Below, piece after piece: positions 34,135 to 37,680 of a stretch of DNA of 64,000 nt. Position 1 is the stretch's first letter. Each line of letters opens with the position of its first letter. The stretch lies in NCBI GenBank assembly GCA_016283355.1, contig JAEEMS010000008.1, positions 36,477 through 100,476 on the forward strand, written 5' to 3'. The notes below the pieces were generated by a model. The model saw only the letters and a list, made by a program, of their open reading frames with translations, did not search any database and had not been told where the DNA came from. This DNA is from Elusimicrobiaceae bacterium (lineage in GTDB: Bacteria > Elusimicrobiota > Elusimicrobia > Elusimicrobiales > Elusimicrobiaceae). The position numbers and the translations under genes are program-made.

Positions 34135-34482
34135 TTATTTTTCTCCTTTGTATATTATCCAGCGGTCAGGGGCTTCCGCTACTTTAACACTATATAAATG
34201 CGGGAGTGATTTGTCCGCTTTTTTATAGAGCCAAATGCAGACGTTTTCCGTTGTCGGATTTTTGAAGAATGTGCTTAAATTTTGTTTTTCTAACGGTTTG
34301 ACAATTTGCAAGAGTACTTTTTGTACTTCCCGAAAATCCAAGAGGAATCCTTCCTCGTTTAAAGGGCCATGGAAAGTGACTTCATACGTAAAGGTGTGTT
34401 CATGCAAAGATTCGTTTAAAGAGCCGTCATGGCTATGAGATGCTGTGAAAGAACCCGTCTGCGTGAGGTAAACTTTTGTCAT
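34135..34482 (-). CDS. PTPS-III-like 6-pyruvoyltetrahydropterin synthase paralog (probable FolB bypass)
   Basis: 115 residues with the tunnelling fold of QueD/PTPS. Metal-ligand histidines are visible (ASHSHDG and LHEH). At the active site, true QueD has Cys at the first position of CxxxHGH (the copy at 37336 has CHDLHGH); here the stretch reads NESLHEH, so Cys is replaced by Asn and a Glu stands next to it. A Glu replacing or accompanying this Cys defines PTPS-III, which turns dihydroneopterin triphosphate directly into 6-hydroxymethyl-dihydropterin and replaces FolB. Its position between folP and folK fits exactly, and no folB is present here. Overlaps folP by four bases. Confidence 0.8.
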   Translation of the reverse strand: MTKVYLTQTGSFTASHSHDGSLNESLHEHTFTYEVTFHGPLNEEGFLLDFREVQKVLLQIVKPLEKQNLSTFFKNPTTENVCIWLYKKADKSLPHLYSVKVAEAPDRWIIYKGEK

Positions 34483-35270
34483 TTTGCATTCTCCAATTCT
34501 TTGTAAAAATCGATGACTTTGTGTGTATCTCGTACATCGTGCACGCGTAAAATATCAGCCCCTTGCTCCAGGGCGATTAAATTGGCGGCTAACGTTTGTG
34601 CTTTGCGTTTGGGGGGGAGTTCCCGTTTTTGTGCCAGGAATGTTTTGCGGGAAAGCCCAACTAGTACGCGTACACCCAATTCTTTAAAAAAATGTATATT
34701 TTTGAGGAGTAAATAATTTTGTTCCCGCGTCTTTGCAAAACCAAATCCGGGGTCTATAATAATTTTTTCGTCGGGAATGCCACAATTGCGGGCTTGTGTA
34801 ATTTTTTCTGCCAAAAAATTTTTAATTTCACCAATCAAATCGTTATAAGAGGTAAGCGTTTGCATGTTTTGTGGGTTTCCGCGTGTATGCATTACGACGA
34901 TCTGTGCATTAAAATCTTTTACAAGCCGGAACATGTCTTTACCAGTTGTGCCGCTGACATCATTTATAATAGACACGCCATTTTTGAGACCTTCTAACGC
35001 AACGACCGGTTTAGTAGTATCTAGCGAAAGAGGAATTTTTGGCCATTTCTTATGCGCCTCTTTAATAAGCGGCAATACGCGTGATAATTCTTCTTCGGCG
35101 GATACCGGGGATGCTCCGGGACGGGTGGATTCTCCGCCGATATCTAAAATATCGGCGCCATCCGCAACAAAATCCGTGCACTTTTTTACAAGTGCATCTA
35201 AATTATTTTGTGGATTCCCGTCGTAAAATGAATCCGGTGTGGCATTCACGATACCCATCAGTTGTGTCAT
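34479..35270 (-). CDS. folP: dihydropteroate synthase
   Basis: 263 residues, TIM barrel. Joins hydroxymethyl-dihydropterin pyrophosphate with p-aminobenzoate; target of sulfonamides. Motifs: MGIVNATPDSFYDG, DILDIGGESTRPGA, SIINDVSG, IIDPGFGFAKT, VGLSRKTFL and ILRVHDV. It lies three bases after the TraB-like gene and overlaps the PTPS-III-like gene (ATGA). Confidence 0.95.
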   Translation of the reverse strand: MTQLMGIVNATPDSFYDGNPQNNLDALVKKCTDFVADGADILDIGGESTRPGASPVSAEEELSRVLPLIKEAHKKWPKIPLSLDTTKPVVALEGLKNGVSIINDVSGTTGKDMFRLVKDFNAQIVVMHTRGNPQNMQTLTSYNDLIGEIKNFLAEKITQARNCGIPDEKIIIDPGFGFAKTREQNYLLLKNIHFFKELGVRVLVGLSRKTFLAQKRELPPKRKAQTLAANLIALEQGADILRVHDVRDTHKVIDFYKELENAK

Positions 35271-35273
35271 AAG

Positions 35274-36209
35274 TTAATCCTCTATGAGTACTTTTTCTTG
35301 TAAGCCGTCCAGTGAGCACTCCTGCCACAACTCCTGCGGAGAAATTTGATCCATCCGAACGTAACGGGGGTTTCCGAGCATTTTTTTGAGTGCTTTGTGG
35401 ATGTCTACGAAATGTCCGGATCCCATTTCACTGAATACGATTTCATATTCATTTAAGGCTGCGGCTATGTTCTCTAGCATAAATACGCTTCGTACATCAG
35501 GTATTCCGCGTAGCAGTTTATAAAAAGGAGTCCTCGTTACCCACTTTTTGGGGGTTACTTCCATTAAATCTAAGTAGAACGATATAAAATCAGTTGTGTT
35601 GAAATCTCTGCCATAGTGCTCTTGGAAATAAGCCAGCAGACGATCTTCAGTAAATAATTCGCCCCATGCCGGATTGTGCACTGTGCGTTTGTAATCTCTA
35701 ATTTCTTGTGCAGCGCTCGTTTGTTTTCCCTCGTACTTGGCAAAACCGTATGCACTACGAATTATCCAGAACATTTGAAAATCCTCATATGAAAAACCGT
35801 GCTGCTCAGCATATTTCCATTGCGTTTCCAAATCAGCGTCCGTTCGTACTAGTGGGATATTGTTCTTGGCACTCAGAGCAGCTGTATAAGCGTCCTCATG
35901 TTGCGTGCAATTTCCCAGAGGGAACCCCGGCTCTCTTTCAATAAGTGCAACTTGCGGATGATAGGTATCAAAAGCGTACTGTACGGCAGGTAAAGATTGA
36001 GGGCCGTGTTTGGCTGCCAATAGTACAAGGGTTCGTCCGTTCTTTTGATAAATGGCTAAAAAAGGGGGAAGGCCCACTTTTTTGAGAAGATCACTCGTTT
36101 GTTTCGGAGTAGGATTAATGACCAAACGAGTATCTGCTGTAAAGGTTTGTGCCAATGTTCCACAACAGGTGCAACCGAGGAAGATAATCAATGCAAGGAT
36201 TTTTTTCAT
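35274..36209 (-). CDS. secreted TraB/Tiki-like protein (tentative)
   Basis: 311 residues. A Sec signal peptide (MKKILALIIFLGCTCCGTLAQ) precedes a domain whose start, LVLLAAKHGPQSLPAVQYAF followed by PQVALIERE, resembles the GxxH...S...V...P..V.vE pattern of the TraB/Tiki fold, with Ala in place of the Gly. The C-terminal FSEMGSGHFVDIHKAL resembles the closing GxGH motif of that fold. Some members are metalloproteases; activity here is unproven. It is embedded between folE (13 bases) and folP (3 bases), so it is co-transcribed with cytoplasmic folate enzymes for no clear reason. Confidence 0.5.
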   Translation of the reverse strand: MKKILALIIFLGCTCCGTLAQTFTADTRLVINPTPKQTSDLLKKVGLPPFLAIYQKNGRTLVLLAAKHGPQSLPAVQYAFDTYHPQVALIEREPGFPLGNCTQHEDAYTAALSAKNNIPLVRTDADLETQWKYAEQHGFSYEDFQMFWIIRSAYGFAKYEGKQTSAAQEIRDYKRTVHNPAWGELFTEDRLLAYFQEHYGRDFNTTDFISFYLDLMEVTPKKWVTRTPFYKLLRGIPDVRSVFMLENIAAALNEYEIVFSEMGSGHFVDIHKALKKMLGNPRYVRMDQISPQELWQECSLDGLQEKVLIED

Positions 36210-36222
36210 GCGACGCCCTCAC

Positions 36223-36843
36223 TTATTTAATCATTTCTAAAAATTCGCTGCGTACTTCCATCTTTTTAAATGCACCGCGGATGGCACTGGTAACCATTAC
36301 TGCGTTGTGCTTTTCAATTCCGCGTGAGCTGATACACATGTGTTTGGCTTTGCAAACCACCATTACGCCGTGCGGATGGAGCGTTTGCATTAAACTGTCG
36401 GCAATTTGGGCTACCAATTTTTCTTGGATTTGTAACCGGCGGGCAAACACTTCCACGAGCCGTGCCAATTTGGAAATGCCCAGCACGCGCCCGTTGGGCA
36501 AGTAACCAATGCTAATCGTACCGAAGAAAGGTTGCAAATGGTGTTCACAGGTGGAATAGAACTCAATGTCTTTGAGTACCACCATTTCCTCGCAAGAACC
36601 TTCTACAAATGTTTTCAAAACATCTTGCGGTTTTTGGGTATACCCGCCGTAAAGTTTCTTCCAGCTTTTCACGATACGTTTGGGCGTTTCCAATAACCCT
36701 TCACGGGAAGGATCATCCCCGATATAGGATAAAATTTCGCGCAAATTTTGCAGAACTTTTTCTTCCGTTATTTTACGTTTATTAGTTTGTGCAGTTGCAC
36801 GCTTAGCCGAGCGCTTGGATGTTGTTTGATTAGTTTTACGCAT
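36223..36843 (-). CDS. folE: GTP cyclohydrolase I
   Basis: 206 residues. Converts GTP to dihydroneopterin triphosphate, the common precursor for QueD and the PTPS-III-like enzyme. Zinc and active-site motifs: STCEHHLQPFFG and HMCISSRGI, with DPSREGLLETPKRI at the start of the domain. The first 25 residues are a basic Thr/Lys/Arg tail encoded inside queE (76-base overlap); no other in-frame start exists before the conserved domain, and CAGGAG lies 12 bases upstream of the ATG. Confidence 0.94.
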   Translation of the reverse strand: MRKTNQTTSKRSAKRATAQTNKRKITEEKVLQNLREILSYIGDDPSREGLLETPKRIVKSWKKLYGGYTQKPQDVLKTFVEGSCEEMVVLKDIEFYSTCEHHLQPFFGTISIGYLPNGRVLGISKLARLVEVFARRLQIQEKLVAQIADSLMQTLHPHGVMVVCKAKHMCISSRGIEKHNAVMVTSAIRGAFKKMEVRSEFLEMIK

Positions 36844-37367
36844 AGGTCTATATTCTCCTGTTTGTTACTTTCCGGTTGTAGGTAAATTTGTGTCTTTTCG
36901 TTTTCATATAAGTAATATTTTTGCAAATCTTTCAAATCGGTTTGTTGGGTGATCACCAATTTAATGATATCGGCTTTGGCGAGCATTTCTTTTGCTACGT
37001 ATTTTTTAGGGGAAACGCATACAAAATCAGCTTTGCTTACATCACAATCCTTGGCACCGTTTGTTTCAATGTGTACGATATGCCCGGCACTTTTTAATGC
37101 ATTAATGAGTGCGGGCAAATCTTGTTCCGTGGGTTCTCCGCCCGTGATGACAACTGTTTTGCATGGGAACTGTGCCAATGCTACTAAAATCTGCAAACTG
37201 TTCATTTCTTCCCCGTCGGAAAATGCATATTTCGTATCGCAAAAATTACACCCCATGGAGCAGCCGGCCAAGCGCAAGAACACCGCAGGCATACCGGTAT
37301 GTTTACCCTCACCTTGAATGGAATAGAAAATTTCGTTAATTTTCCACGATAGCGGCTGCATTTTCAC
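36768..37367 (-). CDS. queE: 7-carboxy-7-deazaguanine synthase QueE
   Basis: 199 residues. Radical-SAM enzyme forming 7-carboxy-7-deazaguanine from the QueD product. It shows IFYSIQGEG, the CxxxCxxC-type motif CSMGCNFC, VVITGGEPTEQ and the family-typical ending SVQLHKLINVK, so its C-terminus is genuine although it overlaps folE. It overlaps queD upstream by 32 bases. An alternative ATG six bases further in (37361) cannot be excluded. Confidence 0.94.
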   Translation of the reverse strand: MKMQPLSWKINEIFYSIQGEGKHTGMPAVFLRLAGCSMGCNFCDTKYAFSDGEEMNSLQILVALAQFPCKTVVITGGEPTEQDLPALINALKSAGHIVHIETNGAKDCDVSKADFVCVSPKKYVAKEMLAKADIIKLVITQQTDLKDLQKYYLYENEKTQIYLQPESNKQENIDLCVKLIKQHPSARLSVQLHKLINVK

Positions 37368-37680
37368 TCTCCCAAATTTCGAGCGTTTTTAAAGTCAGTT
37401 TTTGTTTTTTCAATTTCGTACCGATTTTTTTGAAATAGAATTGAGCTAAATTTTCGGCGGTCGGGTTGGGTACAATTTTGTTAAGAAGTTCATGATCGGG
37501 TAGGTTGTCGTCTAACAATTTTTTTAATTTCTTAAAATCACATACCATCCCGTCGGATTTTACCTTGCCTTCAATAATGAAAACGGCCTTCCACGTATGC
37601 CCATGTAAATCATGGCATAGCCCTTTATAGTGAGGCAAGTGATGGGCGGCTGAAAAAAAGCGGATAATTTTAATGCGCAT
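37336..37680 (-). CDS. queD: 6-carboxy-tetrahydropterin synthase QueD
   Basis: 114 residues. Converts dihydroneopterin triphosphate to 6-carboxy-tetrahydropterin. Full QueD signature: FSAAHHLPHY, the catalytic Cys with zinc histidines in CHDLHGHTW, DFKKLKKLLDD, DHELLN, PTAENLA and a C-terminal LEIWESENAAA. It contrasts with the Cys-less paralog at 34135. Overlaps the DUF1189-like gene by 11 bases and queE by 32. Confidence 0.95.
   Translation of the reverse strand: MRIKIIRFFSAAHHLPHYKGLCHDLHGHTWKAVFIIEGKVKSDGMVCDFKKLKKLLDDNLPDHELLNKIVPNPTAENLAQFYFKKIGTKLKKQKLTLKTLEIWESENAAAIVEN

What the first reader, a model, noticed from the sequence alone, without database searches (positions are those of the whole stretch)
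34135..34482. PTPS-III-like FolB bypass next to a true QueD paralog
Two PTPS-fold enzymes sit 3 kb apart in one operon. One has the QueD motif CHDLHGH; the other reads NESLHEH, lacking the catalytic Cys and carrying the Glu that defines PTPS-III, plus an unusual Gly-to-Glu change between the zinc histidines. It lies exactly between folP and folK, where folB would be expected. PTPS-III as a folB replacement is established in some bacterial phyla and Plasmodium; the Asn and HEH variant appears divergent.
Basis: partly seen in the sequence, partly recalled or inferred. Interest (0 to 1): 0.7.

Follow-up and report, generated by a model that had tools for sequence, protein, structure and literature searches.

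The report
Divergent PTPS-III replacing folate enzyme FolB
A gut bacterium of the Elusimicrobia lacks the usual folate (vitamin B9) enzyme FolB and very probably makes the same intermediate with a reworked relative of a tRNA-modification enzyme, a known type of replacement seen here in an unusual form that, in close relatives, is fused to the next enzyme of the pathway.

Summary
Confirmed. The ORF at 34135-34482 (-) is a 115-aa PTPS-fold protein with NESLHEH where QueD, 2.9 kb upstream, has CHDLHGH. It overlaps folP by 4 bases and ends 1 base before folK. The 96%-complete genome has no FolB and no transaldolase-type substitute.

Comparison across the phylum supports the FolB-bypass reading strongly. 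None of 22 FolB-bearing genomes examined has a PTPS with the Glu. Every FolB-less, FolK-bearing genome whose PTPS I read has it: as a CExxHGH hybrid, or as a separate Cys-less paralog beside a Glu-less QueD. In the sister family, FolK-bearing genomes keep Glu in 16 of 16 sequences; after FolK loss most do not. Six relatives fuse this PTPS in frame to FolK.

The variant is a conserved clade (over 50 genomes, including what looks like Elusimicrobium minutum). Glu and three zinc histidines are invariant. The Cys, the Asp-His partner pair and the HGH glycine are gone. The Gly-to-Glu change is one of many at a now variable position. The strict published signature ExxHGH therefore fails, so motif-based annotation would miss it. 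A new variant of a known kind; activity is untested.

The parts
34135..34482 (-). PTPS-III-like protein, 115 aa, proposed FolB replacement
   Evidence: PF01242 76.5 bits; AlphaFold2 pLDDT 95.7; best PDB match PH0634 2dj6, TM 0.89
34411..34413 (-). Codon of Glu24, proposed catalytic base (position Cys+1 of QueD)
   Evidence: Invariant in all 56 Cys-less sequences of the set; aligns with the Glu of PH0634 WEDVHGH
34396..34404 (-). HEH: zinc positions His27 and His29, with Glu28 where other PTPS have Gly
   Evidence: Both His invariant; residue 28 variable in the clade
34429..34437 (-). HSH: first zinc position His16 and clade-invariant extra His18
   Evidence: 52 of 52 clade sequences
34285..34290 (-). 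Residues 65-66 (Glu-Lys), where QueD and hybrids have the catalytic Asp-His
   Evidence: Asp-His in 86/86 QueD and 56/56 hybrids, lost in the Cys-less proteins
34479..35270 (-). folP, dihydropteroate synthase; its stop overlaps the start of the PTPS gene by 4 bases
   Evidence: TIGR01496 302.6 bits
33636..34133 (-). folK, hydroxymethyl-dihydropterin pyrophosphokinase; starts 1 base after the PTPS stop; fused to the PTPS in six relatives
   Evidence: TIGR01498 116.9 bits; fusions
35274..36209 (-). 311-aa ORF of unknown function between folE and folP
   Evidence: No Pfam or NCBIfam match
36223..36843 (-). folE, GTP cyclohydrolase I, shared first step of folate and queuosine synthesis
   Evidence: TIGR00063 230.5 bits
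36768..37367 (-). [quoted passage not shown]
   Evidence: Radical SAM; best NCBIfam matches are QueE models, under their cut-offs
37336..37680 (-). queD (PTPS-I), CHDLHGH with Asp-His retained and no Glu at Cys+1
   Evidence: PF01242 98.1 bits; QueD model 78.7 bits, cut-off 89.25

Best explanation
The gene encodes a zinc-dependent PTPS-fold aldolase that takes the place of FolB. FolE makes 7,8-dihydroneopterin triphosphate; the PTPS-III-like protein binds the pterin through Glu103 and holds Zn with His16, His27 and His29. Glu24 acts as the base for a retro-aldol cut of the side chain, giving 6-hydroxymethyl-7,8-dihydropterin, which FolK uses next. Queuosine synthesis is left to the neighbouring QueD, which keeps Cys-Asp-His and has lost the Glu. 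Shown here: fold, conserved residues, operon, FolB absence, co-variation of the Glu with pathway content, FolK fusions, purifying selection. Inferred: the chemistry, zinc binding, and whether the substrate is the triphosphate or the monophosphate.
For: No FolB in the genome or in 61 genomes of the order, while FolB is found elsewhere in the phylum. No transaldolase-family substitute; folP, folK, folE and folC present. Glu in none of 22 FolB-bearing genomes and in all FolB-less, FolK-bearing genomes read. In f2, Glu in 16/16 sequences with FolK against 3/14 without. PTPS-FolK fusions in six genomes. Median dN/dS 0.10, like QueD 0.13, FolK 0.12 and FolP 0.15. Closest solved relative PH0634 by sequence and fold. 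The Plasmodium enzyme needs its Glu for this product (PMC2229834); Pyrococcus furiosus PF1278 is given as a folate PTPS-III (PMC5041015).
Against: No activity data. The published signature ExxHGH is not fully met (HEH). Asp-His is lost, whereas PH0634 keeps it. The f2 correlation is not corrected for ancestry beyond two well-supported independent pairs. No DHFR_1 match in the genome, so the end of the pathway is not fully accounted for. G118 (FolK found, FolB not) has a PTPS that I could not read.
Confidence: 0.9

Rival explanations
1. A second QueD-type or biopterin-type (PTPS-I or PTPS-II) enzyme that merely sits among folate genes.
For: Same fold and family; the operon also holds queuosine genes.
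Against: The Cys essential to PTPS-I and PTPS-II is absent in the whole clade and the Asp-His pair is gone. A complete QueD is already in the operon. Fused to FolK, not to queuosine genes. FolB is otherwise missing.
Confidence: 0.03
2. A catalytically dead PTPS that serves as a scaffold or regulator for FolP and FolK, with an unknown protein doing the FolB step.
For: Loss of Cys, Asp-His and the HGH Gly looks like decay of the QueD machinery; the FolK fusion also fits a scaffold.
Against: Glu24, the zinc histidines and the pterin anchor Glu103 are invariant, and dN/dS is low. In other families the Glu follows the folate pathway. No FolB or transaldolase candidate found.
Confidence: 0.04
3. A sub-reading of the favoured one: a FolB replacement whose true substrate is dihydroneopterin monophosphate, as suggested for archaeal PTPS-III, not the triphosphate.
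For: The nearest solved relative is archaeal, PH0634. [quoted passage not shown]
Against: Bacterial PTPS-III and the Plasmodium enzyme are described with the triphosphate (PMC2229834, PMC5041015). Sequence does not decide it.
Confidence: 0.25

Closest known systems
PTPS-III, the FolB-replacing subfamily of COG0720 (Pribat et al. 2009, not readable here; described in PMC5041015; Plasmodium enzyme in PMC2229834)
   Same: PTPS fold, Glu at the PTPS-III position, no catalytic Cys, clustering with folate genes, FolB absent
   Different: HGH glycine replaced and variable across the clade, Asp-His pair lost, extra invariant His18, fusion to FolK in six genomes
PH0634 of Pyrococcus horikoshii (2dj6, 2dtt)
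   Same: Closest solved structure by sequence and fold; Cys-less with Glu (WEDVHGH)
   Different: 33% identity; keeps HGH and Asp-His (LDHRNLN)
PTPS-I/III hybrid (CExxHGH), as in the other folate-making families of this phylum
   Same: Carries the same Glu; the only PTPS in FolB-less, FolK-bearing relatives
   Different: Keeps Cys, Asp-His and HGH, and presumably serves queuosine as well
QueD (PTPS-I)
   Same: Fold, zinc histidines, pterin-anchor Glu
   Different: CxxxHGH with Asp-His and no Glu at Cys+1; queuosine pathway
FolB (dihydroneopterin aldolase, PF02152)
   Same: Presumed product and pathway position; distantly similar T-fold (TM about 0.5)
   Different: Different family; no sequence match

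Membership tests
PTPS-III | PTPS fold (COG0720 / PF01242) | tested here: met
   PF01242 76.5 bits; TM 0.89 to 2dj6
PTPS-III | Glu at the PTPS-III position with no catalytic Cys | tested here: met
   Glu24 invariant in the clade; Cys position is A, N, S or D
PTPS-III | Strict signature ExxHGH (PMC5041015) | tested here: not met
   Window reads ESLHEH; 52 unique clade sequences lack the Gly and only G209 keeps it
PTPS-III | Linked to folate genes in a genome without FolB | tested here: met
   Between folP and folK; no FolB; FolK fusions
PTPS-III | Forms 6-hydroxymethyl-7,8-dihydropterin | not testable with these tools
   Needs an enzyme assay or complementation
PTPS-I (QueD) | CxxxHGH motif | tested here: not met
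   NESLHEH
PTPS-II (biopterin) | CxxxxxHGH motif | tested here: not met
   No Cys before the HxH in the sequence
FolB | PF02152 match | tested here: not met
   Only PF01242 is matched; no PF02152 match in the genome
PTPS-VI (folate enzyme named in PMC5041015) | Its own signature motif | not tested

The most novel reading that the evidence does not exclude
A mechanistically pared-down branch of PTPS-III in which the whole Cys-Asp-His machinery and the HGH glycine are gone, leaving zinc, Glu24 and a new invariant His18. It hands its product directly to FolK, to the point of becoming one bifunctional protein in six species, and its substrate preference or product ratio may differ from known PTPS-III.
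Probability: 0.35. Interest if true: 0.5.

Novelty: new variant of a known kind. Interest (0 to 1): 0.42.

Why it matters
It closes a gap in folate synthesis for a whole bacterial family, and shows that the published ExxHGH signature is too strict and would leave these genes unassigned. The phylum also offers a natural series from FolB plus QueD, through one hybrid enzyme that presumably does both jobs, to two specialised paralogs and finally a fusion with FolK. That makes the roles of Glu, Cys, Asp-His and the HGH glycine testable by simple swaps.

Tried and rejected
Transaldolase-type FolB substitute: none in the genome. Recent duplication of QueD within the family: the PTPS-III clade is monophyletic (100/99) and not nested in the family's QueD, which instead is sister to the g14 hybrid (100/93); whether it arose by old duplication or transfer is not resolved, with only 142 columns. 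Close relatives outside the phylum: the one genome-contig scan, made with a single sequence, returned only an Elusimicrobiales MAG, and plasmid and phage searches gave only matches of 27-33% identity, mostly annotated QueD. Pribat et al. 2009 not held. No paper found that links Elusimicrobiota with this step. One alignment call failed on wrong coordinates and was redone.

Full report
What is there. The ORF at 34135-34482 on the minus strand encodes 115 residues that match PTPS (PF01242, 76.5 bits, cut-off 22.4). Where the QueD protein at 37336-37680 reads CHDLHGH, it reads NESLHEH. All genes from queD to folK lie on one strand and are closely packed: queD, queE, folE, a 311-aa ORF without family match, folP, this ORF and folK. 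The folP stop and the ORF's start overlap by four bases, and folK begins one base after its stop.

FolB is missing. The genome (1.4 Mb, 29 contigs, 96% complete) has no FolB match, exactly two PTPS genes and no transaldolase-family protein, which has been suggested as another FolB substitute (suggestion reported in PMC4224340). folP, folK, folE and folC are present, so the step is needed. None of 61 genomes from the same order has FolB. The same search finds FolB in 33 of 248 genomes drawn from the phylum, so the model can find it in this phylum. The genome also has no DHFR_1 match, so another enzyme must be assumed for the last reduction or that gene is in the unassembled part.

The Glu tracks the need for the step. 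I read the PTPS motif of genomes across the phylum. All 22 FolB-bearing genomes examined lack a Glu after the Cys. Outside families f1 (the window's) and f2, 34 FolB-less, FolK-bearing genomes with a CExxHGH protein were read, the published PTPS-I/III hybrid motif. Four genomes with two PTPS genes (f4: G105, G147, G251; f11: G242) have a Glu-less QueD plus a Cys-less EPLHGH protein. In f2, the sister family, 16 sequences from FolK-bearing genomes all have CE, while 11 of 14 sequences from FolK-less genomes have R, K, A, G or S there (Fisher p = 6.7e-6). That p-value ignores shared ancestry, and only two independent comparisons on well-supported branches exist, so on its own it is suggestive. 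One genome (G118, FolK present, FolB not found) has a weak PTPS match that I could not read.

The window's family. In f1, the two PTPS genes are present in nearly all genomes of genera g1, g12 and g13. One of these, G090, is a single contig of 1,643,562 bases, which from memory is the size of the E. minutum Pei191 chromosome; its copy reads LNEAQHTHTF next to folK. Genera g14 and g16 have one hybrid each (CEALHGH, CERLHGH). In g14 the operon is queD-queE-folE-folP-folK with no PTPS between folP and folK, which looks like the state before the specialised gene was inserted.

What is unusual. In 52 unique clade sequences Glu24, zinc positions His16, His27 and His29, and the pterin anchor Glu103 are invariant. 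The Asp-His pair that completes the catalytic triad is present in 86 of 86 QueD and 56 of 56 hybrids but lost in the Cys-less proteins of f1 and also of f4 (Tyr at the His position). PH0634 shows that this loss is not obligatory, since it lacks the Cys but keeps Asp-His. An extra His18 is invariant in the clade. Median dN/dS is 0.10, like the neighbouring genes, so the gene is under functional constraint.

Fusion to FolK. In six genomes (G004, G015, G019, G022, G031, G083) the PTPS domain and FolK form one open frame of 285-334 codons, and in the two scanned both domains pass their Pfam cut-offs. Fusion with the enzyme that uses the predicted product is strong independent support. I found no report of such a fusion in the papers searched, but that search was limited to open-licence papers.

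Structure and relatives. AlphaFold2 gives a confident model (pLDDT 95.7, pTM 0.87). The closest solved structure by fold and by sequence is PH0634 (2dj6; TM 0.89, 33% identity), which reads WEDVHGH. Plasmodium PTPS, in which the Glu was shown by mutation to be needed for 6-hydroxymethyl-dihydropterin (PMC2229834), is also matched. His27 and His29 lie in one strand, so residue 28 should face away from the metal (inference); this would explain why it can vary.

Origin. The f1 PTPS-III proteins form one clade (100/99) apart from the family's QueD, which is sister to the g14 hybrid (100/93). This fits a gain of a specialised PTPS-III followed by loss of the Glu from the formerly bifunctional QueD. 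Whether the gain was an old duplication or a transfer is not resolved.

Verdict. The protein very probably does the FolB job as a PTPS-III-type enzyme. It fails the strict published signature (ExxHGH), so I describe it as working like PTPS-III and as a new variant of that kind. A subfamily called PTPS-VI is also said to be a folate enzyme (PMC5041015); its motif was not available to me, so part of the novelty could shrink. Substrate (tri- or monophosphate) and activity are open.

Noticed in passing
Whole genome G000: No DHFR_1 (PF00186) match although folC, folP, folK and folE are present; the reduction of dihydrofolate must be done by another enzyme or the gene is in the missing 4%.
   Followed up: no
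35274-36209 (-): A 311-aa protein with a signal-peptide-like start sits between folE and folP; no Pfam or NCBIfam match. Seen at the same place in only a few relatives (G004, G015, G019).
   Followed up: partly
L230, L238, L241 (G111, G187, G202; family f5): Weak FolB matches (22-25 bits, cut-off 31.8) lie directly beside a Glu-less QueD: probably divergent FolB proteins.
   Followed up: partly
L070-L079 (sister family f2): FolK lies in open frames of 545-672 codons, long enough for a FolK-FolP fusion.
   Followed up: no
L242 (G213): A PTPS-II-like protein (CDNPNGHGH) in a FolB-bearing genome of family f7.
   Followed up: no
L151 (G209): Only member of the family's PTPS-III clade that keeps HGH (LNEGAHGHDF); next to folK.
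   Followed up: partly
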